64,000 nt of DNA from Candidatus Mailhella excrementigallinarum (GTDB taxonomy: Bacteria > Desulfobacterota > Desulfovibrionia > Desulfovibrionales > Desulfovibrionaceae): positions 1-64,000 of the forward strand of contig CALUUZ010000002.1 in assembly GCA_944324075.1 (NCBI GenBank). The letters run 5' to 3'. This document shows positions 45,596 to 61,362 of this stretch, piece after piece. The notes under the pieces were generated by a model. That model saw only the letters and a program-made list of their open reading frames with translations, searched no databases and was not told where the DNA came from. A program made the translations under genes and the position numbers. Positions within the stretch are counted from its first letter, which is position 1. The number at the start of each line of letters is the position of its first letter.

Positions 45596-48088
45596 ATGGG
45601 TGAAGCATGTTGTTGTTCCGATCAGGAACTGTTGCTGCGGGAACTCGCGGGCGGCGGAGACAACCCCCACCGGAAGGAGCATCCCCGTCTGTTCGCCATT
45701 CTGGACACCTTTGACGGCATGACGCCGGTCATCGACGTGCAGCGCGGACGGCTGTTCACGGAATCCATGAGACGGACAGAGGGGCAGCCCCTGGTGCTGC
45801 GCTGGGCAAAGGCGCTGAAGCATATTGCCGAGCACATTACGGTATATGTGGAGCCCATGCAGCTTGTTGTGGGGCGCTGCGGCACCGACGCCGGGCGTTA
45901 CGGCATTCTGTATCCCGAACTGAACGGCGATTTCATGGACGAATCTCTGCGCTCGCTTGCGCACAGGGAAGCGTCTCCCCTGAACGTGAGCGAGGAGGAC
46001 GTCCGCATCGCGGCGGAGGAAATAGCGCCCTACTGGAAAGGCAGAACCTTTCATGAGGCTCTGAACAGGAGCCTTCCTCCCGAAGCGCACCGGCTGGCCT
46101 ACAATGACGAGAAGGGATATTCCACCCGTTTCGTGGTCAGTGAAACGGCATCCTATCGTTCTTCCCTGCAATGGGTTCCTGACTATGCCAAGGTGCTGGG
46201 CAGGGGATTTTCCGGCATCAGGGAGGAAGCCGAGGCGCGCCTGGCCGCGCTCAATCCTCTCAGCCCGGTGGACAGGCTGAGGCGCAAGCCGTTTCTTGAA
46301 GCGGTGATTCTCACATGTGAGGCAGTGGTGCTGTGGGCGCGCCGGCACGCGGAACTTGCCCGGCGGAAGGCGGAAATCGAGCGTGATCCCGTCCGGCGGG
46401 CGGAGCTTGCGCTTATTGCCGAGAACTGCGAGAGAGTTCCCGAGTTTCCGGCCCGGAACTTTTACGAGGCCGTGCAGGCCCATTGGTTTACCCAGGCCTT
46501 TTCAAGACTTGAACAGCGCACGGGGAGCATTGTGTCGAATGGCCGCATGGATCAGCTGCTCTGGCCCTATTACCGGAAGGACAGGGAGGAGGGGAGGATT
46601 ACTCCCGCCCGCGCGCTGGAGATTTTCGACTGTCTGTGGCTCCAGATGGCTCAGTTCACGGATCTTACATTGTCTTCCGGCGCAATGGCCACCAAGGAAG
46701 GCTATGCCCACTGGGAGGCCGTGACCATCGGCGGCCAGACGCGGGAAGGTTTCGACGCCACCAACGAACTGAGCTATCTTATTCTGGAGTCGCGCCGCGT
46801 TTCCCCCATGCCGTATCCTGATCTGGCCGTCCGCATTCATGCTCGTTCGCCCCAGCGCTTCCTGTGGGAGGTGGCGGAAACCATCAAGGTGGGGCAGGGT
46901 TATCCCAAGCTGTTCAATGACGAGGAGATTATTCCGCTGCATCTGGCCAAGGGCGCTCCTGAAAAGGATATCTTTGACTATTCCGCCTCCGGCTGCGCCG
47001 AGATCCGCATGCCCAACCGGGATACGCTGACTTCGGCAGGCTGCCAGGTCAACCTTGGTGCTGTGCTGGAAATGACGCTGCGCAACGGACGCATGAAAAA
47101 GCACGGGAGCGAGCTGCTGGGGCTGGAAACGGGCGAGCCCCGCATGTTTTCGGACTGGGAGGCGTTCTGGAGCGCGTTCGTCGCGCAGTTGAACAACTGC
47201 CTCAGTTTCGCCTTTGCCGATACCATGCTGGTGCACAGGCTGCGCGCCGAGCATTTCGCCACGCCGCTGAGTTCTGCCCTGCACGATCTGTGCATGGCGT
47301 CATGCAGGGATCTGCATACCAGCGAGAAAATCGAGGGAGGGCTTGATCTCGGATTCAATGACCTCATCGGTTTCGCTACCGTGGTGGATGCTCTGGCGGC
47401 AGTGAAGAAGCTGGTCTATGAGGACGGAAAGGTGGGGATGGACGAGCTGATGCAGGCTCTGGATTCCAACTTTGAAGGCATGGAAGCCCTGCGGCGTCTT
47501 CTGGAGAGCGCCCCCCGCTTCGGCAACGGCGATCCGTACGCGGATGAAATCGGACGCAGACTTGATCGCGCCGCTCAGGAATACTGTCGCACATGGGCGG
47601 GAGAAACCGGCATCCGTCAGGATATACGGACCGTCTCCGTGACCGCCAACGTCCCCCACGGCAAGGAAGTGGGCGCGCTGCCGAACGGCCGCAGAGACTG
47701 GATGCCCCTGTCTGACGGCTCTTCTCCGGTACAGGGCGCGGATATGAAGGGGCCCACGGCCTCCCTCATGTCCAGTTACGCGTCAAAGAACCGGGATTAC
47801 AATGAGCGGGCCGCGCGGCTGCTGAACCTCAAGCTTTCCCCATCCTGCATAGCCGGGGAAGAGGGCACGGCGAATCTGGTGGGGCTGATCCGCACTTTCT
47901 GCGACTTGCGGCTGTGGCATGTGCAGTTCAATGTCATTAATCGTGAAACCATGCTGGCGGCCCAGGAAGATCCGCGGAAATACCGGGGACTCATAGTCCG
48001 CATTGCGGGGTACAGCGCCTACTTCACCGAATTGTCCCGCGATCTGCAGGACGATCTCATTGCGCGAACCGAGCATTCCCGCATCTAG
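45596..48088 (+). CDS. Glycyl radical enzyme, probable sulfonate C-S lyase (isethionate sulfite-lyase-like)
   Basis: This 830-residue enzyme has the glycyl radical motif VRIAGYSAYF with Gly805 and the thiyl site SASGCAE with Cys467 and Glu469. Residues that I recall as binding the sulfonate or lying in the active site of isethionate sulfite-lyase (Arg189, Gln193, Trp374, Cys468, Glu470, Arg678, Gly805) have counterparts here at R188, Q192, W373, C467, E469, R678 and G805. That favours a C-S lyase over choline lyase or diol dehydratase. Isethionate or 2,3-dihydroxypropane-1-sulfonate are candidates, giving sulfite for respiration. AAGGAG lies five bases before the ATG. The SAM-dependent activating enzyme that such proteins need is not in the window. 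Expression depends on a sigma-54 promoter. Confidence 0.72.
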   Translation: MGEACCCSDQELLLRELAGGGDNPHRKEHPRLFAILDTFDGMTPVIDVQRGRLFTESMRRTEGQPLVLRWAKALKHIAEHITVYVEPMQLVVGRCGTDAGRYGILYPELNGDFMDESLRSLAHREASPLNVSEEDVRIAAEEIAPYWKGRTFHEALNRSLPPEAHRLAYNDEKGYSTRFVVSETASYRSSLQWVPDYAKVLGRGFSGIREEAEARLAALNPLSPVDRLRRKPFLEAVILTCEAVVLWARRHAELARRKAEIERDPVRRAELALIAENCERVPEFPARNFYEAVQAHWFTQAFSRLEQRTGSIVSNGRMDQLLWPYYRKDREEGRITPARALEIFDCLWLQMAQFTDLTLSSGAMATKEGYAHWEAVTIGGQTREGFDATNELSYLILESRRVSPMPYPDLAVRIHARSPQRFLWEVAETIKVGQGYPKLFNDEEIIPLHLAKGAPEKDIFDYSASGCAEIRMPNRDTLTSAGCQVNLGAVLEMTLRNGRMKKHGSELLGLETGEPRMFSDWEAFWSAFVAQLNNCLSFAFADTMLVHRLRAEHFATPLSSALHDLCMASCRDLHTSEKIEGGLDLGFNDLIGFATVVDALAAVKKLVYEDGKVGMDELMQALDSNFEGMEALRRLLESAPRFGNGDPYADEIGRRLDRAAQEYCRTWAGETGIRQDIRTVSVTANVPHGKEVGALPNGRRDWMPLSDGSSPVQGADMKGPTASLMSSYASKNRDYNERAARLLNLKLSPSCIAGEEGTANLVGLIRTFCDLRLWHVQFNVINRETMLAAQEDPRKYRGLIVRIAGYSAYFTELSRDLQDDLIARTEHSRI

Positions 48089-52371: not shown

Positions 52372-53178
52372 TTATCCGAACACATGGTCAAGGCACATCA
52401 TCAGCACAAAGCCCGCCATGAGCCCGGCGCTTGCCGCCCGGCCATTGCCCGAGCCATGGCCCTGCGGAATGACTTCCGACACGACGACGTAGATTATGGC
52501 TCCGGCGGCAAGGCTCATGGCATAAGGCAGGAGCGACGTCACCTGTGCCGCCACGGCTGCGCCGATTGCTGTGGTCACGGGTTCCACCAGGCCGGGGGCC
52601 TGGCCGATGAGAAAAGCCCTGCGGCGGGAACAGCCGTCTCCGAGCAGAGGCAGGGCCACGGCCATGCCCACGGGCAGATTATGCAGACAGATGCCGCAGG
52701 TCAGAAGCGCGGCTCCGGCCAGCCCTCCGGTTTCGGGAGAACTCAGAGCGGCTCCGAAGGCCACGCCGAGCGCCAGTCCCTCTGGAATATTATGCAGGGT
52801 GACGGCAAGGAACAGCAGAATATTGCGGGGAAATGCCGGTTCTCCGGGTTCGCGGATTGTCTCCTGCTCATGACGGTGAATGCAGGCATGGGGCAGAACG
52901 CGATCCAGCATGTCGAGCAGCAATGCTCCCGCGGCGAGGCTTGCGGCCACGGGCACAAAGTCCATGCGTCCCCAGGTGGTTCCTGCCAGTTCAAGCGCAG
53001 GGGAGAGCAGACACCAGAATGAAGCCGCGAGCATCACGCCCGCCGCGAATCCGAGCAGAATGTCAAGGGTGCGCCTGGAACATGCGCGGGGAGTGAATGC
53101 AAAAGCCGCTCCTGCGGCGGTGAAGCCCCAGGTGGCCAGCCCCGCCAGCAGCGCGGGAAAGACGGGAGAAGAAATCAT
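52372..53178 (-). CDS. ZIP family metal transporter
   Basis: This 268-residue membrane protein has about eight helices and the ZIP metal-site motifs: LAVTLHNIPEGLALG in helix 4 and TCGICLHNLPVGMAVAL in helix 5, where the usual HEIPxE-type motif is changed. A short His-containing loop (HACIHRHEQE) precedes helix 4. ZIP proteins move zinc or iron into the cytoplasm. The ATG complementary to 53176-53178 is chosen as the start of the hydrophobic region; upstream codons lie in a poorly conserved stretch. It has no obvious functional neighbour. Confidence 0.88.
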   Translation of the reverse strand: MISSPVFPALLAGLATWGFTAAGAAFAFTPRACSRRTLDILLGFAAGVMLAASFWCLLSPALELAGTTWGRMDFVPVAASLAAGALLLDMLDRVLPHACIHRHEQETIREPGEPAFPRNILLFLAVTLHNIPEGLALGVAFGAALSSPETGGLAGAALLTCGICLHNLPVGMAVALPLLGDGCSRRRAFLIGQAPGLVEPVTTAIGAAVAAQVTSLLPYAMSLAAGAIIYVVVSEVIPQGHGSGNGRAASAGLMAGFVLMMCLDHVFG

Positions 53179-53271
53179 GTGCTGTTGCTCCAATGGCGCG
53201 TGACGGACGTCATGCGCCGCAGCCGTTGAGCCTAGCACAGGGCGGGAGGAAAGAAAACAGCCGCAACCACG

Positions 53272-53299
53272 CCTCCCCGGCTCCATGGAGCCGGGGAGG
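53272..53299 (-). terminator. 28-bp perfect palindrome after the FlxA-like gene
   Basis: CCTCCCCGGCTCC and GGAGCCGGGGAGG are perfectly complementary around AT. It lies 24 bases past the stop of the FlxA-like gene and probably ends its transcript, although no T tract follows. Confidence 0.55.
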
Positions 53300-53323
53300 C
53301 CGCCGCGTCAGAGGGAGGAGGGA

Positions 53324-53830
53324 TCATGCCGCCTGCTGCGCCATCGCGTTCAACTGCTGCTGCAGGTCGTTGACCTGCGCCTGCAGGACATTCATCTGGC
53401 TGGCCTTCACATTTTCCGGCAGGGAACTTGAGGCGATGCTTTGAAGTCTGGCTTCAAGCTGTCTGATTTTTTCCCTGATGCTCTGAATCTGATCTGCTGA
53501 GGAACTTCCTCCGCTGCCGGAAGCTCCTGCCGATCCGCCCGCTTCCGCTGCGCCTTGCTGTTCCGCGTTGTCCGCGGCCGGGCCGTTTCCTGCCGGCGCG
53601 GCGCTGGACTGCCGCGACTGTTCCTGTTCCTGCCGCCGCTGTTCTTCCTGCTTTTCCAGAAGCATCTTTTCGGACAGCTTCCGGGCTTCTTCGGAGATGC
53701 TGACCGTGTCGCTTCCACCCGGGAGTCCGAGGGCACTGCCCTCCTGCCCGTTGTTTTTACCGCGCGCTGCACGGGCGCTTTCTTCCGCTTCCTGTGAGAA
53801 AAAAATACTGCCGTAACCGGAAATTTCCAT
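53324..53830 (-). CDS. FlxA-like coiled-coil protein
   Basis: This 168-residue hydrophilic protein has three parts: an N-terminal segment with SDTVSISEEARKLSEKML, a Gln/Glu-rich helix followed by a Gly/Ser/Ala-rich linker, and a C-terminal coiled coil (IQSIREKIRQLEARLQ ... VLQAQVNDLQQQLNAMAQQ) of the FlxA-like family. The SISEEARKLS segment is like one found in many small flagellum- or secretion-related proteins. AGGGGG lies six bases before the ATG complementary to 53828-53830. Family function is poorly defined. It is divergent from the cobalamin riboswitch, with about 220 featureless bases between. Confidence 0.65.
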   Translation of the reverse strand: MEISGYGSIFFSQEAEESARAARGKNNGQEGSALGLPGGSDTVSISEEARKLSEKMLLEKQEEQRRQEQEQSRQSSAAPAGNGPAADNAEQQGAAEAGGSAGASGSGGSSSADQIQSIREKIRQLEARLQSIASSSLPENVKASQMNVLQAQVNDLQQQLNAMAQQAA

Positions 53831-54051
53831 GCTATACCCCCTGCAGGAAGTTTTCCGGCAGAAGATGCCGGATTCATTTCCGCAACGCCTGCCATGCAAA
53901 AACAGTGCCGGGGCAAAGGAGGAAAATTTTGCTTTTTTTTGATGCCCGCAACCCGGCTCCATTCTTACATTTTTTGCATGCAATCGTTGCGGCGCAAGGA
54001 TTCTGATCGAGTTGACGCGCGGGCAGAGGGAAGGGTACACAGGAAGCCGAC

Positions 54052-54250
54052 ATGGTTTCACCCCCTCCTCTGAGGGGGGAACGAAGAGGGAATCCGGAAT
54101 CTTCCGCGCGGTATGTGAGGCGGGGTGGGCCGGAGCTGTCCCCGCAGCTGTGATCGGTGAATTCGCGCCTTTCATGCCACTGCCCCCGTCCGGGTCGGGA
54201 AGGCGGCGCGGAGTGAAGACCCGAGAGCCAGAAGACCTGCCATGTCGCGC
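54052..54250 (+). ncRNA. Cobalamin (B12) riboswitch
   Basis: The leader contains GAGGGAATCCGG, GGAGCTGTCCCCGCAGCTGT, GCCACTG, CGGGAAGGC, GAAGACCCGAGAGCCAGAAG and the B12 box GCCAGAAGACCTGCC in the right order. The box lies near 54236-54250. A terminator follows at 54353. This is the usual off-switch: adenosylcobalamin stops expression of the downstream gene, here nrdD. Confidence 0.93.
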
Positions 54251-54352
54251 GTATCGGTTGGGGCGGGGGGTCCTTGCAAGGCGCGTCCTACAAAAAGACC
54301 CGGAAGGGCTTTGTCGACGTATCACGTGATTTACCCTCTGTTCATTTGCAAT

Positions 54353-54380
54353 GCCCCCTGCGGGGGGTGAGGGGGCTTTT
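54353..54380 (+). terminator. Riboswitch-controlled intrinsic terminator before nrdD
   Basis: GCCCCC (54353-54358) pairs with GGGGGC (54371-54376) and TTTT follows. It lies between the B12 box and the nrdD start, the expected place for the riboswitch expression platform. Confidence 0.75.
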
Positions 54381-54437
54381 CGGCCTGATGACGGAACCGG
54401 CCCCGGGGTCGTGTTATACTTTGAGAGATCTGAAGAT

Positions 54438-56720
54438 ATGTTGAGTTCCCTGAAAAAGCGTGATTCGCGCACCGTGCCGTTCACCCGGGAAAAGATTGCC
54501 CGCGCCGTGTTTCGCGCGGCGCAGTCGCAGGGCGGCAGTGATTACGCCATGGCCGAAGATATCGCGGCAAGGGTGAGCGCCGAGCTGGAAATCCGCTATC
54601 CTGATGAAGCCGCCGGCATGCCCGATGTGGAAGAAGTGCAGGATCTGGTGGAAAAGACGCTGATTGAGCTGGGACACGCCCGCACTGCAAAGGCATATAT
54701 TCTTTACCGCAACGAGCGTACCCGCGTGCGTGAGCGCAAGACCCGGCTGATGCGGACCATGCGCGATCTCACCTTCAAGGACGCCAGCGAGAGCGATCTG
54801 AAGAGAGAGAACGCCAATATTGACGGCGATACCGCCATGGGCACCATGCTCAAGTACGGCAGCGAGGCTTCCAAGCAGTTCTATGAGATGTACATGCTGA
54901 AGCCCGAGCACAGCCAGGCGCACAAGGACGGGGACATCCACATTCACGATCTGGATTTTTTCTCTCTTACCACCACCTGCTGCCAGATTGACATCAAGAA
55001 GCTGTTCGAGGGCGGATTCAATACCGGCCACGGCTTCCTGCGCGAGCCGGAGAGCATTCAGAGCTACAGCGCGCTTGCCTGCATCGCCCTTCAGTCCAAT
55101 CAGAATGACCAGCATGGCGGACAGAGCATTCCCAATTTTGAATACGGCATGGCCAGAGGCGTGGCCAAGAGCTTCATAAGCAAGCTGGCTCTGGTTCTGG
55201 ATATACGCGGGTATGACGCCGCGCCTGTCAGGGCCGCGCTGCGCGCCTGGCTGAAGGAACATGAATCCATCCTCGGAGAGGAGGGTATGCTCTTCGTCCG
55301 TGAGACTCTGGCCTGCCGCCTGCCCGAAATGTCCGCCGCGGAAGCGGAAAACGCCGTGGACAAGGCTCTGGAACTGACGGAAAAGGACACCTACCAGGCC
55401 ATGGAAGCTCTGGTGCACAACCTGAACACCATGCACAGCCGGGCCGGAGCGCAGATTCCGTTCAGCTCCATCAACTACGGCACGGACACCAGCCCGGAGG
55501 GACGCATGGTCATCCGCAACGTGCTGCTGGCTACCGAGGCCGGGCTGGGCAATGGAGAAACGCCGATTTTCCCCATCCATATCTTCAAGGTGAAGGAAGG
55601 CGTCAACTACCGCAAGGGAGAGCCGAACTACGATTTGTTCCGCCTTGCCTGCCGGGTGTCCGCCAGGCGTCTGTTCCCGAATTTTTCCTTTATTGATGCG
55701 CCGTTCAACAAGGTCTACTACCGGGCGGGACACCCCGAGACGGAAATCGCCTATATGGGATGCCGCACCAGAGTTATCGGCAACGCGCATGATCCCGGGC
55801 GTGAAATCGTCAACGGACGCGGCAATCTGAGCTTCACCTCCCTGAATCTGCCCCGGCTGGGTATCCTTGCCCGTGGTGACGTGGACGCCTTTTTTCCGAG
55901 TCTGGACGACAGGATTTCCCTGGTGTTCGACCAGCTTCTGGAGCGTCTGGAAACCCAGAGCGTCAAGAAGGTGCGCAACTATCCCTTCCTCATGGGGCAG
56001 GGCATCTGGATCGATTCCGACAAGCTCGGACCGGATGACGAGGTGCGTGAAGTCCTCAAGCACGGCACGCTGACCATCGGCTTCATTGGGCTGGCCGAAT
56101 GTCTCAAGGCCCTGATCGGTCAGCACCATGGCGAATCCGAAGCCGCGCAGGAGCTGGGCAAGCGCATTATCCGGCATATCCGCGACAGGGCGGATGAGAA
56201 GATGAGGGAAACCGGGCTGAATTTCTCGGTTATCGCCACGCCTGCCGAAGGGCTGTCCGGACGCTTCGTCCGTCTGGATCAGGAGCGTTTCGGCGTGATT
56301 CCCGGCGTGACCGACCGTGAATATTATACCAACTCCTTCCATATACCGGTATATTTCCCGATCAGCGCCTATGACAAGATTCGTCTGGAAGCACCATATC
56401 ACGCCATGACCAACGGCGGACACATCACCTATGTGGAAGTGGACGGCGATCCTTCCCGCAACATTGACGCCTTTGAGGATATCATCCGGGCCATGAAGGA
56501 AATGGGCGTGGGATACGGTTCCATCAATCATCCGGTGGATCGTGATCCGGTGTGCGGCTACACGGGCATCATCAATGATGTGTGCCCCCGCTGCGGACGG
56601 CATGAGGGAGAAGGCATTCCGCTGGAAAAATGGAGGCGTCTCAAGGGCTATGCGAAGGACTACCGTTCGCCTGACGAGCGGGCCTCCGCAGGTGACGTCA
56701 CACCCAACATTACCCTTTAA
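54438..56720 (+). CDS. nrdD: Anaerobic (class III) ribonucleotide reductase body, lacking the glycyl radical motif
   Basis: This 760-residue protein has an N-terminal ATP-cone (about 1-95; RTVPFTREKIARAVFRAA) and a class III reductase barrel (KDGDIHIHDLDFFSLTTTCC, QNDQHGGQSIPNFEYGMARG, FTSLNLPRLGI, NGGHITYVEVDGDPSRN). The C-terminus has VCGYTGIINDVCPRCGR, part of the zinc site with three of the usual four cysteines. It then ends ASAGDVTPNITL with no radical motif; WRRLKGYAKD is at best a degenerate version. The normal RITGYL motif is encoded separately at 56912. The enzyme makes deoxynucleotides without oxygen. Cobalamin repression implies that a B12-dependent class II reductase exists elsewhere. 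nrdG is not nearby. Confidence 0.93.
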   Translation: MLSSLKKRDSRTVPFTREKIARAVFRAAQSQGGSDYAMAEDIAARVSAELEIRYPDEAAGMPDVEEVQDLVEKTLIELGHARTAKAYILYRNERTRVRERKTRLMRTMRDLTFKDASESDLKRENANIDGDTAMGTMLKYGSEASKQFYEMYMLKPEHSQAHKDGDIHIHDLDFFSLTTTCCQIDIKKLFEGGFNTGHGFLREPESIQSYSALACIALQSNQNDQHGGQSIPNFEYGMARGVAKSFISKLALVLDIRGYDAAPVRAALRAWLKEHESILGEEGMLFVRETLACRLPEMSAAEAENAVDKALELTEKDTYQAMEALVHNLNTMHSRAGAQIPFSSINYGTDTSPEGRMVIRNVLLATEAGLGNGETPIFPIHIFKVKEGVNYRKGEPNYDLFRLACRVSARRLFPNFSFIDAPFNKVYYRAGHPETEIAYMGCRTRVIGNAHDPGREIVNGRGNLSFTSLNLPRLGILARGDVDAFFPSLDDRISLVFDQLLERLETQSVKKVRNYPFLMGQGIWIDSDKLGPDDEVREVLKHGTLTIGFIGLAECLKALIGQHHGESEAAQELGKRIIRHIRDRADEKMRETGLNFSVIATPAEGLSGRFVRLDQERFGVIPGVTDREYYTNSFHIPVYFPISAYDKIRLEAPYHAMTNGGHITYVEVDGDPSRNIDAFEDIIRAMKEMGVGYGSINHPVDRDPVCGYTGIINDVCPRCGRHEGEGIPLEKWRRLKGYAKDYRSPDERASAGDVTPNITL

Positions 56721-56732
56721 CTTTTCAGCATG

Positions 56733-56895
56733 GAGCAATTCGTTTTGAAATTGCTCATGGAGTCGAGCAGGGCGAGACTCCACGCGAAACGGAGCATCTG
56801 CAGTTCTCTTGCGGAGCAAGGCTCCGGCGTCAGGCATAAGAGCTGCGAGCCAGAACATGGGGTCTTGGCTGGCAGATATTTCAACGACAAAATGT
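56733..56895 (+). repeat. Intergenic repeat, family 1, between nrdD and the radical subunit gene
   Basis: GGAGCAATTC/GAAATTGCTC and GAGTCGAGCAGGGCGAGACTC repeat the paired hairpins of the 51983 copy, and GGCTGGCAGATATTTC ends it. It occupies almost all of the 191 bases between nrdD and the 65-codon gene. Confidence 0.65.
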
Positions 56896-56911
56896 TGCAG
56901 ACGAGGAAGAC

Positions 56912-57109
56912 ATGTACGCAGAACACATTCCGGCCAAGGGCAGCGCTCCCGTGCTTGAACAGAAGCCCGTCCAGATGGTGGGCGAAGGTGTCGGTTTTGA
57001 GCGCATCCGCCGTATCACCGGCTATCTGGTGGGTACGGTTGACCGTTTCAACAACGGTAAACGCGCCGAAGAGAGAGATCGCGTCAAACATTGCAGCATG
57101 GGATGCTGA
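56912..57109 (+). CDS. Free-standing glycyl radical domain of class III ribonucleotide reductase
   Basis: This 65-residue protein is essentially the C-terminal tail of NrdD: RIRRITGYLVGTVDRFNNGK with Gly37 as the radical residue, then RAEERDRVKH, and a final CSMGC with two cysteines that might complete the zinc site missing one cysteine in the NrdD body. GAGG lies five bases before the ATG, and a strong terminator follows the stop. It is in a different frame from nrdD and has its own 25-residue N-terminal segment, so it is not a simple frameshift product. The likely role is to dock on NrdD and supply the radical after activation by NrdG, as GrcA/YfiD does for pyruvate formate-lyase. Confidence 0.82.
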   Translation: MYAEHIPAKGSAPVLEQKPVQMVGEGVGFERIRRITGYLVGTVDRFNNGKRAEERDRVKHCSMGC

Positions 57110-57114
57110 AAAGG

Positions 57115-57140
57115 AAAGGCCGGGAGACCGGCCTTTTTTT
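57115..57140 (+). terminator. Intrinsic terminator of the nrdD unit
   Basis: AAAGGCCGG and CCGGCCTTT pair around GAGA, and the second arm runs into seven T. It begins five bases after the stop of the radical-domain gene. Confidence 0.9.
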
Positions 57141-57682
57141 GTATCCGGTTTTCGGCCGCTGCGGCGGCAAAGGCTTTCGCCCGGTCCGTATGGAAGCGTA
57201 TCTCGTGAGTGCCCGGGCAATGATATGTTTTAATGCAGTCTTTTTGTCTTTGTAATGAGTCATGGTAGAGTTTGATCTGGAATAGAACATGGCATGATAT
57301 TTACATAATGCATGATGAATAGACTAAAAAGATATATATTGATTGCATTAATATATAATAATATGTTGATGTGCAATTTTGATTTCAAGCAGTAAAGAAA
57401 TTGTGGTGTGATATGAGAGTAAATATTTTGTTTTTATAAACAATAAGAGTTTATTTTGAAAGTATATAAGCAATTTTAAATTTAAACATGGGCAGGATAT
57501 AAAAAGAGGATGATGACGCTTTTGGGGCAGGATGCCTCTCTCTTTTGGATTGAGTGGTGTAAAATTAATATGCTATATACAGAAAGGGAGAAGGGATCTG
57601 CCGATATGCGGAGAAAATCATTGGTGAGTTGAAGATATATTGTCACGTCGTGGCTCGGGCCGGAGATCAGGAATGAACGTTG
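57141..57682. other. AT-rich non-coding stretch before the helicase cassette
   Basis: From about 57235 to 57660 the sequence is strikingly AT-rich (runs such as TTAATATATAATAATATG) compared with the GC-rich surroundings. I see no gene and no terminator of the cassette's own. It must hold the cassette promoter, but AT-richness makes any hexamer assignment unsafe. Confidence 0.6.
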
Positions 57683-59113
57683 ATGTTTTGTTCAAGCAGT
57701 GACTGGGAGCTGACCACGGAGCCCTATGCCCATCAGCGTGCCGCGGTTGAAAAGCTTTCGCGCCTTAATGTGGGGGCCCTGTTCATGGATATGGGTACGG
57801 GCAAGACTCGTACGGCCATTGAACTTGTCTGGCTTCGCAGAAAGCTTATTTCCAAATGCGTATGGTGCTGTCCTGTTTCGCTCAAGGAGACGGTGAAAAG
57901 GGAGATATTGCGCCATACTTCCTGCAGGGATGAAGATATTCACGTCTTTGGCTCAAAGACGCGGGAAACGAATATTCCACGGGTCGGCTGGCACATTGTC
58001 GGCCTGGAAAGTCTTGGCAGATCCGCCCGCGTGTTTTCCGCGCTCGGCAGGCTGATCGACGGCGGAACATTCCTGATTGTTGATGAATCATCATACATCA
58101 AGGGCCATAAGGCCAAAAGAACCAGGCGTCTTACCAGGCTGGGCGTCCGGGCGCCGTACCGTCTGATTCTTACCGGAACCCCGATTACGCAGGGCATTGA
58201 AGATCTGTATGCGCAGATGGAGTTCCTGTCGCCCCGGATTCTGGGCTGCCCGTCGTGGCACTCGTTCCGGAACATGTATGCCGCTCTCCCGAATGACGGT
58301 GAACGTGTGGAAAGGACAGAGAATTTCAGCGAGGTCTGCCGGAACATTGTGCCGTATGTGTACCAGATCAGCAAGGAAGAGTGCCTGAGCCTGCCTCCCA
58401 AGACGTACCGGCGTGTCATATGCAAGTTTTCCGAGGAGCAGACCCGGCTGTATCAGGCGGTGAAGAGCCGTTTTCTGGAAGAAATGTACGGAACATATGA
58501 TCCGGCGGGCATGGGGATGGCGATTTACCGCCTGTTCAGCGGGCTGCATTCCGTGTCCTGCGGGGTGCTTCCCGCCGGATTTTCCGGAAAAAAGCGCCTG
58601 AAAAATATGCGGGTGGAACAGTTGATAGAGTTGTTCCGGAAGGTTAGAACTAGTCATATAATTACATGGGTGAACTATCGCGAGTCTCTTGCCGCGCTGG
58701 GCGAGGCCCTGCACGCGGCGTTCCCGGAAATGCCCGTCTGCAGGATTTTCGGCGGACTTTCTCCGGCCGTGCGGACCGCGCAGCTTGATCTCTGGAGAAA
58801 GGGCGGCGGGGTGCTGCTGGCGACGCAGGGCACGGGGGGATATGGACTGACACTGACGGAGGCGGATCATGTGTTCTTTTTTTCGGAAAACTGGAAGTAC
58901 GCGCTCAGGATACAGGCCGAGGACAGATGCCACAGAATAGGGCAGAAGCGCAGCGTCCACTATGTGACGCTGCAGTGCGAGTGCAATCTTGATGAACGCA
59001 TTCGTTCCGCGCTTTCCCGCAAGGCCGATGCCCTTGAGGAACTGAAAAGGGAAATCAGAAGACTGAACGGAGACTACGGCACCATACGGAAACTTGTGGA
59101 GCAGACGGTATGA
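57683..59113 (+). CDS. Short SNF2-family DEAD/DEAH-type helicase (phage-like)
   Basis: This 476-residue ATPase contains the SNF2 helicase motifs in order: PYAHQRAAV, Walker A MDMGTGKTRTA (Lys41), the DESS box in LIVDESSYIKGHKAKR, LILTGTPITQGIEDLY, LLATQGTGGYGLTLTEA and QAEDRCHRIGQKRSV. It has no extra DNA-binding domains, as in phage-encoded SNF2 proteins. The start may be ATG 57683 or the TTG before it; the ribosome binding site is weak. Its stop overlaps the next ATG (ATGA). It probably translocates on double-stranded DNA; its target is unknown. Confidence 0.88.
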   Translation: MFCSSSDWELTTEPYAHQRAAVEKLSRLNVGALFMDMGTGKTRTAIELVWLRRKLISKCVWCCPVSLKETVKREILRHTSCRDEDIHVFGSKTRETNIPRVGWHIVGLESLGRSARVFSALGRLIDGGTFLIVDESSYIKGHKAKRTRRLTRLGVRAPYRLILTGTPITQGIEDLYAQMEFLSPRILGCPSWHSFRNMYAALPNDGERVERTENFSEVCRNIVPYVYQISKEECLSLPPKTYRRVICKFSEEQTRLYQAVKSRFLEEMYGTYDPAGMGMAIYRLFSGLHSVSCGVLPAGFSGKKRLKNMRVEQLIELFRKVRTSHIITWVNYRESLAALGEALHAAFPEMPVCRIFGGLSPAVRTAQLDLWRKGGGVLLATQGTGGYGLTLTEADHVFFFSENWKYALRIQAEDRCHRIGQKRSVHYVTLQCECNLDERIRSALSRKADALEELKREIRRLNGDYGTIRKLVEQTV

Positions 59114-60300
59114 AACGTTTCCTGGGTATGGATGTGTTTGCCGCGGCGCGGCTGCGGCTTGAGGAGATTTTTGACGCTTTTGAGCGGGTCTATGTTTCCT
59201 TCTCCGGAGGAAAGGACTCCGGTCTCGTCGTTCAGTTTGCTCTGGAAGTGGCCCGAGAGAAGGGCCGGTTGCCCCTGGATGTGCTGCATATCGATCTGGA
59301 GGCGTGGTACGCGCATACCGATGCCTTTGTCACCCGCATCATGACCAGGCCGGATGTCCGGCCGCACTGGATTTGTCTGCCCCTGCACCTGCGGAATTCC
59401 GTGTCCCAGATACAGCCGCACTGGCTGTGCTGGGATCCGGAGGCGCGGGCGCTGTGGGTACGTGAACTTCCCCGGTATCCGGGGGTGATTGCGGCGGAGG
59501 GATATTTTCCCTGGTTCAGGCGGGGCATGGAATTTGAGGAATTTTCTCCCCTGTTTGCGGAGCACTTCGCGCAAGGCCGTCCGTGCGCCTGCATCGTGGC
59601 CATACGCAGCGATGAATCCCTGAACCGTTTCCGAACCATCGCGTCGGCGACGAAACGGCGCTGGAAGGGGAAGAGCTGGAGTACGGCGACACCTTCCGGC
59701 GTTGTCAATATCTACCCGATATACGACTGGCGCACGGAGGATATCTGGACGGCCACAGGCAGAAAGGGGTGGGACTACAACCGGATTTACGACCTCATGC
59801 ATCTTGCCGGAGTGGGTATCCACCAGATGCGTCTCTGCCAGCCGTACGGGGATGATCAGCGCAAGGGACTCTGGCTTTTCAAGATGCTTGAGCCGGAAAC
59901 CTGGACCAGGGTTGTCGGGCGGGTGCAGGGGGCGAACTTCGGCAACCGGTATGTGGAGCTTTCCGGAAATGTGTTCGGCAATATCCGTATTCGCCTGCCG
60001 GCGGGGCATACATGGCAGAGCTATGCCGAGTTTCTGCTGGATACCATGCCTCCGCCCACGGCGGAACACTATCGGACGAAGATCGGAAAGTTTCTTAAAT
60101 GGTGGGCCAAACAGGGCGTCGAGGATATCCCGCAGGAAGCTGACGCGAGGCAGGAGGCTCTCCGCAAGGCTCCGAGCTGGCGGCGCATCTGCAAGGTGCT
60201 GCTGAAAAACGACTACTGGTGCAAGGGGCTGAGTTTTTCCCAGACCAAGCGGGAGATGGAGCGGCAGGCGCAGATCATCATGAAATATATGGAGCTGTGA
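59110..60300 (+). CDS. ibrA: IbrA-like PP-loop (PAPS reductase-type, DUF3440) protein
   Basis: This 396-residue protein has the PP-loop ATP-pyrophosphatase motif SFSGGKDSGLV (residues 30-40) followed by a PAPS-reductase-type fold (LDVLHIDLEAWYAHT), then the DUF3440-type region with IYPIYDWRTEDIWTATGRKG and RLCQPYGDDQRKGLWLFK. IbrA proteins of enterobacterial prophages share this plan. Relatives include DndC/SscC-type proteins of DNA phosphorothioation, but no DndD/E partners are present. It overlaps the helicase stop by four bases and the next start by one. AMP-activated modification of a nucleic acid or regulator is a reasonable guess; no activity is proven from sequence. Confidence 0.85.
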   Translation: MKRFLGMDVFAAARLRLEEIFDAFERVYVSFSGGKDSGLVVQFALEVAREKGRLPLDVLHIDLEAWYAHTDAFVTRIMTRPDVRPHWICLPLHLRNSVSQIQPHWLCWDPEARALWVRELPRYPGVIAAEGYFPWFRRGMEFEEFSPLFAEHFAQGRPCACIVAIRSDESLNRFRTIASATKRRWKGKSWSTATPSGVVNIYPIYDWRTEDIWTATGRKGWDYNRIYDLMHLAGVGIHQMRLCQPYGDDQRKGLWLFKMLEPETWTRVVGRVQGANFGNRYVELSGNVFGNIRIRLPAGHTWQSYAEFLLDTMPPPTAEHYRTKIGKFLKWWAKQGVEDIPQEADARQEALRKAPSWRRICKVLLKNDYWCKGLSFSQTKREMERQAQIIMKYMEL

Positions 60301-60725
60301 TGACACTTCTGGAATTCAAGCATGATGGAGATCCGGTGAAGAACCGGGAATTGTTCGGACTGATGGGCGAGTATGCTTCAAGCACGGCCGTCCGCGAGAA
60401 GCTCGGCGGCTTCATCAGCTCTGAGCCGGGCCGTCTGTGGTTCATCATGACGGAAGGTGAAAGAAACGGAGTCATGGCGTTCGGATCGGTGCGGATCAGG
60501 CGGGCATCGGCCCATATTCTCCACCTGTATGCCCTGGAAGAGGGAGGAGATATTCCCCTGCTGGAACGCTGCATTGAAGCGGCGCGGGAGGCGGGGGTGG
60601 AGCGTCTGATAACCACGGACTACTGGACCCGGCGGGATATGTACCTCCAGTATGGATTTCGCGCCGTCCGCAAGCTCGGACGCTTCCTGCGGTTTGAAAA
60701 GGAGTTTGAGCATGGACGTGAATGA
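60300..60725 (+). CDS. Small GNAT-like acyltransferase-fold protein
   Basis: This 141-residue protein has a GNAT-like plan: LWFIMTEGERNGVMAFGSVRI (strands 2-4), AHILHLYALEEGGDIPLLERCIEAAREAG (acyl-CoA binding strand and helix) and DMYLQYGFRAVRKLGRFLRFEK (terminal strands). The usual QxxGxG/A pyrophosphate loop is not clear, so acetyl-CoA binding is uncertain. It starts within the stop codon of the IbrA-like gene and overlaps the IbrB-like gene by 14 bases, so it is a fixed part of the cassette. Confidence 0.65.
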   Translation: MTLLEFKHDGDPVKNRELFGLMGEYASSTAVREKLGGFISSEPGRLWFIMTEGERNGVMAFGSVRIRRASAHILHLYALEEGGDIPLLERCIEAAREAGVERLITTDYWTRRDMYLQYGFRAVRKLGRFLRFEKEFEHGRE

Positions 60726-61362
60726 GGCGCTGGCCGCCCTGGAGCATATTCTGCTGGAGCAGAAGGGTTGTCTGGATGAGAGGGTCGTGGTGTACAACCG
60801 TATCGTCGCTCTGGCAGCCGACTATCTGGACATTCCCCATCCGGTGACGCGCCTGCAGCTGGTTCCGGTTGATGATGTCCGGGGCAATGACTACAATCCC
60901 AACAAGGTTGCGCCTCCGGAGATGCGGCTGCTCAAGCTGTCGCTCCGGAAAGACGGTTTCACCATGCCCGTGGTCGTTGCCGGAGATGAAAAGGGTTATG
61001 TCGTGGTGGACGGCTTTCATCGGAGACAGGTGGCAAAAAATGACGCGCAGGTTCGGGAGAGCCTGGGCGGATATCTGCCGGTGGTCGGCCTGGACAAGGG
61101 AATTGAGGATCGCATTACGTCCACTGTGCGCCACAACATGGCCCGGGGCACGCATCAGGTGGAACTGACGGCAAAGCTCGTGACGCTGCTTCGCAAGCAT
61201 GACTGGACAAATGAACGCATAGGCAAGGAGCTCGGCATGGACCCCGATGAGGTGTTGCGGCTGAAACAGATGCAGGGTCTGGCCGAGGCTTTTGCCGACC
61301 GCGAGTTCTCGCAGGCATGGGATGTGGATGTGCGGGAGAGGGCGGAGGAAATGCGGATCTGA
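60712..61362 (+). CDS. ibrB: IbrB-like ParB/sulfiredoxin-fold protein
   Basis: This 216-residue protein has a ParB N-terminal-type domain (about 45-115): VDDVRGNDYNPNKV, then KDGFTMPVVVAGDEKGYVVVDGFHRRQVA, where DGFHRR is the phosphate-binding box. A helix-turn-helix-like part follows (NERIGKELGMDPDEVLRLKQM). IbrB of E. coli, encoded next to IbrA, has the same build. AAGGAG lies eight bases before the ATG. ParB-type domains bind or hydrolyse CTP or act on nucleic acids, and pairing with a PP-loop protein is recurrent in phages. Possible weak terminator sequence follows near 61372-61405. Confidence 0.83.
   Translation: MDVNEALAALEHILLEQKGCLDERVVVYNRIVALAADYLDIPHPVTRLQLVPVDDVRGNDYNPNKVAPPEMRLLKLSLRKDGFTMPVVVAGDEKGYVVVDGFHRRQVAKNDAQVRESLGGYLPVVGLDKGIEDRITSTVRHNMARGTHQVELTAKLVTLLRKHDWTNERIGKELGMDPDEVLRLKQMQGLAEAFADREFSQAWDVDVRERAEEMRI

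What the first reader, a model, noticed from the sequence alone, without database searches (positions are those of the whole stretch)
54438..57109. Class III ribonucleotide reductase with its glycyl radical domain on a separate 65-residue protein
NrdD (54438-56720) ends without a radical motif, while an independent gene at 56912-57109 encodes RITGYL with the conserved basic tail, its own ribosome binding site and a strong terminator. The small protein also ends CSMGC, which could supply cysteines to the incomplete zinc site of the body. This would be a two-piece reductase, analogous to pyruvate formate-lyase plus GrcA. I do not know of a described case.
Basis: partly seen in the sequence, partly recalled or inferred. 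Interest (0 to 1): 0.78.

Follow-up and report, generated by a model that had tools for sequence, protein, structure and literature searches.

The report
Anaerobic DNA-building enzyme in two pieces
In this bacterium the oxygen-free ribonucleotide reductase, which makes DNA building blocks, appears to come as two proteins, a large body and a small exchangeable 65-residue piece carrying the reactive glycine, and many other anaerobic bacteria and viruses carry a similar small piece.

Summary
nrdD (54438-56720) ends soon after its zinc ribbon, and a separate 65-codon gene (56912-57109) encodes the NrdD glycyl-radical loop RRITGYLVG. The genome has one clear NrdG, a class II NrdJ and no full-length NrdD. 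The pair is conserved: 17 of 19 genomes of the genus have it; in a wide scan, 72 of 79 tail-like ORFs (80 best loci kept of 584) lie near a separate NrdD body, across five phyla; 61 of the 80 loci have nrdG downstream. Body and tail are under purifying selection. The body's own C-terminus looks like a decayed radical loop, so a stand-alone loop probably took over before the built-in one decayed. In 15 of 18 same-genus relatives a second tail lies in an oxygen-defence cluster (rubredoxins, flavodiiron oxidase, mostly with superoxide reductase and cytochrome bd). In viral contigs 349 stretches encode relatives; all 80 kept are stand-alone, 76 with no NrdD in view. Best reading: a two-piece class III reductase with an exchangeable glycyl-radical subunit, a GrcA analogue for NrdD. 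The zinc-completion idea is not supported. Nine searches of an open-access library found no description. Activity in trans is untested.

The parts
54036..54258 (+). Cobalamin riboswitch aptamer upstream of nrdD
   Evidence: Rfam RF00174, 111 bits against a gathering score of 31.5; also upstream of nrdD in L232 (G006), L246 and L026, 3 of 16 loci scanned
54438..56720 (+). nrdD body, 760 aa: ATP-cone, NRDD barrel, zinc ribbon, no intact radical loop
   Evidence: PF03477, PF13597 1-544/562; NF005497 2-722/746; best PDB relative Prevotella copri NrdD 8p23
55761..55763 (+). Codon of Cys442 in MGCRTRV, the expected thiyl-radical cysteine (role inferred by homology)
   Evidence: invariant in the 37-row and 12-row alignments
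56544..56594 (+). Zinc ribbon DPVCGYTGIINDVCPRC (Asp in place of the first Cys)
   Evidence: alignment with split and fused relatives; Asp in 87 of 90 split bodies
56601..56717 (+). C-terminal segment of the body resembling a decayed glycyl-radical loop (RRLKGYAKDY...)
   Evidence: tail HMM scores it 8.1 bits, above all 4300 shuffled segments; alignment
56732..56894 (+). Copy of a dispersed repeat between body and tail; absent from nearest relative G006, whose gap is 26 nt
   Evidence: 41 matches in own genome, itself included; L012 gap; alignment
56903..56908 (+). Ribosome-binding site GAGGAA of the tail gene
   Evidence: sequence; Shine-Dalgarno-like match in 89 of 90 pairs, by a script that prefers such starts
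56912..57109 (+). Stand-alone glycyl-radical domain of NrdD, 65 aa
57020..57022 (+). Codon of Gly37, the predicted radical glycine, at the TGY position corresponding to the radical glycine of P. copri NrdD
   Evidence: phmmer alignment to 8p23; P. copri GRD with Gly711 described in PMC11226230 (passages)
57111..57139 (+). Intrinsic terminator-like hairpin with T run
   Evidence: -20.4 kcal/mol, z -4.44, 0 of 200 shuffles as stable; not listed by the simple scan

Best explanation
This is a class III (anaerobic) ribonucleotide reductase whose glycyl-radical loop is a separate, exchangeable subunit. The 65-residue protein docks its RITGYL loop into the barrel of the NrdD body. NrdG installs the radical on its Gly37. 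The radical is passed to Cys442 of the body, which starts nucleotide reduction. After oxygen cleaves the loop at the glycine, only the small subunit is lost and a fresh copy takes its place, as GrcA does for pyruvate formate-lyase, but here the trans copy is the normal and probably the only source of the radical. Shown by computation: the two-gene anatomy, its wide conservation, the nrdD-tail-nrdG gene order in many relatives, selection on both parts, a decayed-loop-like end on the body, and second tail copies inside an oxygen-defence cluster in 15 of 18 same-genus relatives (not in the window's own genome). Inferred: docking, activation by NrdG in trans, catalysis, and exchange after oxygen damage.
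For: Anatomy. One NrdG over the family cut-off and no fused NrdD found in the genome. Truncated body with an adjacent tail in 17 of 19 genomes of the genus, the window's included; the 22 genomes of other families of the order that have a match all list one over positions 1-562. Of 79 tail-like ORFs in 80 named genome loci, 72 have a separate body in the stretch, 6 none in view, 1 fused (the 80 are the best of 584). Ten pairs in an order sample re-read as separate ORFs. Tail in frame, +1 and +2 in 32, 28 and 19 of 79 rows, one of them the fused L227. nrdG downstream on the same strand in 61 of 80 loci, the fused L227 among them. Median dN/dS 0.13 body and 0.054 tail. By a looser motif that leaves the position free, glycine in 160 of 163 matches from the viral and named loci (the fetch itself used peptides that include the glycine). 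Body C-terminus resembles a decayed loop: 47 of 86 segments above the 95th percentile of shuffles, 28 above the 99th. Second tail between rubredoxin genes, followed by a flavodiiron oxidase, in 15 of 18 same-genus relatives; superoxide reductase seen in 13 and cytochrome bd in 13 of these, the rest being cut by contig or stretch ends. The glycyl radical domain of an ordinary NrdD is mobile (PMC11226230, passages) and is said to flip out for activation (PMC12662201, passages).
Against: No biochemical test exists here. The window body keeps Gly-Tyr in its degenerate loop (RRLKGY), so residual activity of the body alone is not excluded. The read-through model of a relative (L167, TAA read as Q) left the radical loop itself (residues 783-789) below pLDDT 50, and no coordinates were available to measure a Gly-Cys distance. 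In the window, nrdG is far from the pair and a class II NrdJ is present, so the pair need not be essential. The window's own genome has no second tail, nor does the oxygen-cluster copy appear in its nearest relative G006.
Confidence: 0.82

Rival explanations
1. The body still carries a working radical glycine (Gly737 in RRLKGY), and the 65-aa protein is only a spare part used after oxygen damage, exactly as GrcA.
For: The window and 13 of the other 85 distinct split bodies keep KG[YV] at the homologous place; tail copies sit in an oxygen-defence cluster in relatives; stand-alone copies also occur in genomes whose NrdD is fused (e.g. G236 with L292).
Against: The surrounding motif is lost (RRLKGYAKDY against RRITGYLVG). 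In 72 of 86 distinct split bodies the KG[YV] pattern is absent, while the adjacent tail gene is kept; body and tail stay paired across phyla.
Confidence: 0.1
2. The tail is a regulator, decoy or partner of another glycyl radical enzyme rather than the radical subunit of this NrdD.
For: The own genome has six other genes over the cut-off of the PFL-type Gly_radical family, and 76 of 80 kept viral loci show no NrdD within the fetched stretch.
Against: It matches NrdD models and no PF01228 match is listed at E 0.01; its only PDB match is an NrdD; in 61 of 80 named loci nrdG follows it on the same strand; the radical glycine is kept.
Confidence: 0.06
3. The two parts are joined by splicing, ribosomal bypass, frameshift or stop readthrough into one chain, as with intron- or intein-split phage nrdD genes.
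For: Split phage nrdD genes, some interrupted by introns or inteins, are described (PMC3653736, passages).
Against: No intron family matched in 53000-58000 (inteins were not searched for). All three relative frames and stops TAA, TAG and TGA occur; 89 of 90 tails have a Shine-Dalgarno-like site; gaps run from -8 to 263 nt, and the window spacer is largely a dispersed repeat.
Confidence: 0.01
4. A sequencing error or a decaying gene.
For: A spacer made largely of a dispersed repeat lies between the parts.
Against: The same split occurs in dozens of genomes; the conserved 38 aa of the tail are identical in the window and L012 at a synonymous difference of 0.78.
Confidence: 0.01

Closest known systems
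Single-chain class III ribonucleotide reductase NrdD, e.g. Prevotella copri 8P23
   Same: ATP-cone, barrel, Cys loop, zinc ribbon, radical-loop sequence, NrdG activase
   Different: The radical loop is on another protein; the chain ends soon after the zinc ribbon with a degenerate loop
GrcA/YfiD and T4 Y06I, spare parts of pyruvate formate-lyase
   Same: Small stand-alone glycyl-radical protein that duplicates a segment still present on the large enzyme; a phage copy exists; link to oxygen damage
   Different: Belongs to NrdD, not PFL; in this clade the large enzyme no longer has an intact loop of its own, so the small protein is probably obligatory; Andorfer et al. 2021 (PMC8683613, abstract and passages) state that only two spare parts, both for PFL, had been validated
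Split class II reductase NrdJa/NrdJb
   Same: A reductase divided into two chains, C-terminal part separate
   Different: Class II, B12-dependent, no glycyl radical; seen here only through a passage in PMC9669993
Intron- or intein-split phage nrdD genes
   Same: nrdD in two coding pieces
   Different: Described cases include introns and inteins (PMC3653736, passages); here the two parts are independent genes

Membership tests
Class III ribonucleotide reductase NrdD | NRDD barrel and ATP-cone | tested here: met
   PF13597 E 1e-192, PF03477 E 9e-22
Class III ribonucleotide reductase NrdD | Conserved finger-loop cysteine (MGCRTRV) | tested here: met
   Cys442, invariant column
Class III ribonucleotide reductase NrdD | C-terminal glycyl-radical motif on the same chain | tested here: not met
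   degenerate RRLKGY on the body; intact RRITGYLVG on the separate protein
Class III ribonucleotide reductase NrdD | NrdG activase in the genome | tested here: met
   TIGR02491 137.5 bits at G000:C1:241410, the only one of nine matches over the cut-off
Class III ribonucleotide reductase NrdD | Glycyl radical and nucleotide reduction | not testable with these tools
   needs EPR and an activity assay
GrcA/YfiD autonomous glycyl radical cofactor | Stand-alone small protein with an intact glycyl-radical motif | tested here: met
   65 aa, RRITGYLVG
GrcA/YfiD autonomous glycyl radical cofactor | Homology to the PFL-type Gly_radical domain PF01228 | tested here: not met
   only NRDD is listed for the tail in the Pfam scan at E 0.01; in the genome search the NrdD body, not the tail, gives a PF01228 match below the cut-off, 19.2 bits
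GrcA/YfiD autonomous glycyl radical cofactor | Partner enzyme has its own intact radical loop | tested here: not met
   no fused NrdD found in the genome
GrcA/YfiD autonomous glycyl radical cofactor | Restores activity after oxygen cleavage | not testable with these tools
   experiment needed; the oxygen-cluster location in relatives is circumstantial
Intron- or intein-split gene | Intervening self-splicing element | tested here: not met
   no intron family matched in 53000-58000; gap 26 nt in the nearest relative, too short for an intron or intein; inteins were not searched for as such

The most novel reading that the evidence does not exclude
The radical loop of anaerobic ribonucleotide reductase is an exchangeable cartridge shared between cells and their phages. 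An ancient NrdD lineage gave up its built-in loop and takes the cartridge from the nrd operon, from an oxygen-defence operon, or from (pro)phages that bring their own copy to start or restart host dNTP synthesis during infection; the decayed loop left on the body serves as a docking or plug element.
Probability: 0.4. Interest if true: 0.92.

Novelty: new variant of a known kind. Interest (0 to 1): 0.82.

Why it matters
Whether spare-part proteins exist for glycyl radical enzymes other than pyruvate formate-lyase was left open in 2021 (PMC8683613, passages seen). This pair is a concrete candidate for an enzyme of DNA synthesis, already taken further: the spare part seems to have replaced the built-in loop. 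It gives a natural two-component system in which the radical domain can be added, removed, labelled or swapped, which would help to study how NrdG reaches the glycine and how oxygen damage is repaired. It also points to a common small gene in viral contigs, without a PHROG family of its own, with a testable role in host dNTP supply, and to NrdD bodies in databases that look truncated but are not.

Tried and rejected
Zinc completion by C61/C65: rejected. Frameshift, bypass, intron or sequencing error: rejected. The '1 TAG' matches: explained as a rubredoxin zinc site followed by a separate tail gene inside the oxygen cluster, not as a recoded stop. L229 (G025): a start-less NrdD remnant beside a radical-SAM gene; looks decayed, not counted as a spare part. 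Strict monophyly of all split bodies without the fused ones: rejected by the AU test, p 3.6e-77, so re-fusions or repeated splits are needed; four changes on the tree. The structure model did not settle docking. A plain fission origin seems less likely than gain of a stand-alone loop followed by decay, but this is an inference from weak similarity: 39 of 86 segments do not exceed the 95th percentile of shuffles.

Literature: nine searches of the open-access library listed no paper that I recognised as describing a split class III reductase or an NrdD spare part. I saw passages only (found by search terms) of PMC12288474, PMC9669993, PMC3019208, PMC9531940, PMC11226230, PMC8683613, PMC3653736 and PMC12662201; other listed papers were seen as listings and abstract starts only, and the 167 hits only as far as its 25 listed. 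Subscription journals are mostly missing and preprints are not held.
Full report
What is there. The window holds an nrdD gene (54438-56720, 760 aa) with an ATP-cone and the NRDD barrel, matching PF13597 positions 1-544 of 562. 191 nt further on lies a separate 65-codon gene (56912-57109) that matches only the last 30 or so positions of NrdD models and carries RRITGYLVGTVDRFNNGKRAEERDRVKH. Its only PDB match is Prevotella copri NrdD, residues 707-739. In that enzyme the radical glycine is Gly711, in a loop that follows a structural zinc site (PMC11226230, passages); the TGY glycine of the small protein, Gly37, is the counterpart. The gene has its own GAGGAA ribosome-binding site and a stable hairpin with a T run after it (not listed by the simple scan). 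A cobalamin riboswitch precedes nrdD, and the genome has a B12-dependent class II NrdJ, one NrdG over the family cut-off, on another contig, and no other NrdD match.

It is a conserved architecture. In the same genus, 17 of 19 genomes (the window's included) have a truncated body with an adjacent separate tail; G011 shows tails only and G012 nothing. In the other families of the order sampled, 22 of 24 genomes have a match and all 22 list one over positions 1-562, i.e. fused; within the own family both kinds occur (a larger family sample was cut off in its listing). The genus includes records titled Mailhella: the genome of L158 shows the same NrdD coordinates as G017. The 80 carry titles such as Butyricicoccus, Oscillospiraceae, Lachnospiraceae, Mogibacterium, Bacilli, Mailhella, Desulfovibrio, Fibrobacter succinogenes, Succinivibrio dextrinosolvens and Massiliimalia timonensis. 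This sample is biased towards tails like ours. In a less biased sample, the order around Massiliimalia, 10 of 59 genomes have the split pair, 57 of the 59 having some NrdD match; all ten were re-read from the DNA and body and tail are separate ORFs. In a sample of that phylum split forms are a minority: of 61 genomes, 50 with NrdD, one clear adjacent pair (the centre genome itself) and three less clear.

The two parts are separate genes. Across 79 rows (one of them the fused L227) the tail is in frame, +1 or +2 relative to the body in 32, 28 and 19 cases, with TAA, TAG and TGA stops in 52, 20 and 7. Of 98 loci examined, near-duplicates included, 90 gave a body-tail pair by script; the gap has a median of 25 nt (-8 to 263), and 89 of 90 tails have a Shine-Dalgarno-like match, though the script prefers such starts. 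In the window, the long spacer is largely a dispersed repeat with 41 matches in the genome, itself included, and it is absent in the nearest relative, where the gap is 26 nt.

Both parts are maintained. In the window's group, median dN/dS is 0.13 for the body (13 sequences, 68 usable of 78 pairs) and 0.054 for the tail (12 sequences, 55 usable of 66 pairs); synonymous sites are near saturation and five body rows carried some in-frame codons upstream of the likely start, so the values are rough. nrdG lies downstream on the same strand in 61 of 80 named loci, the fused L227 among them, which in the split loci places the tail between the reductase and its activase.

How it arose. A tree of 99 of 119 bodies (20 near-duplicate split rows dropped by hand), cut before the last zinc cysteines so that the trait is not in the data, needs four changes between split and fused; shuffled labels need 25.3 on average, 0 of 500 as few. 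With the fused outgroup as root this fits one ancient split and three re-fusions (L227, L253, L259). It is a quick tree: the branch holding the split rows and these three has support 85, not starred, and L066, L249 and L259 are long branches of unsure place. Strict monophyly of the split rows is rejected, so repeated splits are not excluded. The split rows span Bacillota, Mycoplasmatota, Thermodesulfobacteriota (in two separate groups), Fibrobacterota and Pseudomonadota, and phage sequences. The fused L227 reads CPGCNRTEADGVKFERIRRITGYL, which marks the junction just after the zinc ribbon. Split bodies nevertheless go on with GEGVPVEKLREL-like segments that resemble GEGVKFERIRRI of the tails. 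With an HMM of 12 tails, 47 of 86 distinct body C-termini score above the 95th percentile and 28 above the 99th percentile of 4300 shuffled segments; 39 do not reach the 95th. The window's scores above all shuffles, and that of G024 (L037) aligns along most of the tail profile at 15.3 bits. I read this as a decayed radical loop: a stand-alone copy came first, and the built-in loop then decayed.

Link to oxygen. In 15 of 18 same-genus relatives (G001-G004, G007-G011, G013-G018) a second tail gene lies in one cluster: rubredoxin genes on both sides and a flavodiiron oxygen reductase in all 15; superoxide reductase (desulfoferrodoxin) in 13 and cytochrome bd in 13, the others being cut by contig or stretch ends (families confirmed by Pfam on L235 and L040 only). 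It is not seen in G005 (69% complete), G006 and G012, and the window's genome has no second tail. In GrcA/YfiD a small protein replaces the oxygen-cleaved part of pyruvate formate-lyase, and the authors noted that only PFL spare parts had been validated and that others might exist (PMC8683613, passages). They also found that a remnant segment of the large enzyme is needed for good YfiD binding; the decayed segment on the split bodies may play the same part (inference).

Link to phages. In viral contigs 349 stretches encode a relative of the tail; 80 were kept. Each of the 80 has one motif ORF, of at most 263 codons; in 76 no NrdD body lies within the fetched stretch and in 4 a separate body does. 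The glycine is in the peptide patterns and in the motif used, so its presence in all 80 is partly by construction; with that position left free, 160 of 163 matches from the viral and named loci have it. In four of five inspected contigs neighbours match terminase, endolysin or holin families; in the fifth only a family of unknown function. In annotated phage records 15 hold a match, some in fused NrdD genes; Eggerthella phage EL753P1 has a gene annotated nrdD with the tail match just downstream, overlapping a hypothetical protein. PHROGs lists the tail only under NrdD families. The simplest reading is that phages supply the radical subunit to the host enzyme; this is untested, and viral contigs can include host flanks.

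Structure. A single-chain proxy (L167, its TAA read as glutamine) was folded with an alignment of 37 sequences: mean pLDDT 84.1, pTM 0.81. Its best matches are P. copri NrdD structures. A short strand (777-779, in FERIRRI) and a helix (795-803) of the tail are predicted, but the radical loop itself (783-789) has pLDDT below 50, and no coordinates were available, so docking is not shown.

The zinc idea. Asp stands in for the first zinc cysteine in 87 of 90 split bodies and in the three fused members of the clade. The CSMGC end is found only in the window and G006, and 56 of 90 tails have no cysteine after the RVKH motif. The tail therefore does not complete the zinc site in general.

Verdict. 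The pair is best described as a two-piece class III ribonucleotide reductase with an exchangeable glycyl-radical subunit. It is not filed as an ordinary NrdD, because the radical motif on the same chain was tested and not met, nor as GrcA, because it is not of the PF01228 family and its partner lacks an intact loop; it works like both. No published description was found in nine searches of an open-access library, which leaves subscription papers and preprints unchecked.

Noticed in passing
window 56732-56894: A dispersed, probably structured repeat (z -2.57 for the fold of the spacer) with 41 matches of 70-100% identity in the genome, only 40 of 245 candidates scored.
   Followed up: partly
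window 57680-61362: Downstream genes resemble a phage-type set: SNF2-like helicase, PAPS-reductase/DUF3440 protein, ParB-like protein.
   Followed up: no
window 54036-54258: Cobalamin riboswitch before nrdD in a genome that also has class II NrdJ; also before nrdD in L232, L246 and L026, 3 of 16 loci scanned.
   Followed up: partly
C-termini of split NrdD bodies, e.g. L167, L195, L200: 31 of 86 distinct split bodies have C.?C within their last eight residues, reminiscent of redox-active tails of other reductase classes (recalled).
   Followed up: no
L292 2084-2371, L294 213-494, L243 1438-1710: Stand-alone tails of about 90-96 aa with an N-terminal extension. L292 (G236, which has a fused NrdD) and L294 (G280, NrdD in two pieces) are from the Massiliimalia order sample, L243 from G013: possible true spare parts.
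   Followed up: partly
L290 (G276) and L291 (G257): A second tail gene on the upstream side of the split nrdD, besides the downstream one.
   Followed up: no
L249 (Eggerthella phage EL753P1) 3741-7169: Annotated nrdD followed by a tail match in two pieces overlapping a hypothetical protein, possibly a frame problem in the record.
   Followed up: no
L229 1484-1723: Start-less remnant of an NrdD C-terminus beside a radical-SAM gene in G025.
   Followed up: no
G000, six places listed: Six genes over the cut-off of the PFL-type Gly_radical family in the window's genome, one in the window at 47711-48028.
   Followed up: no
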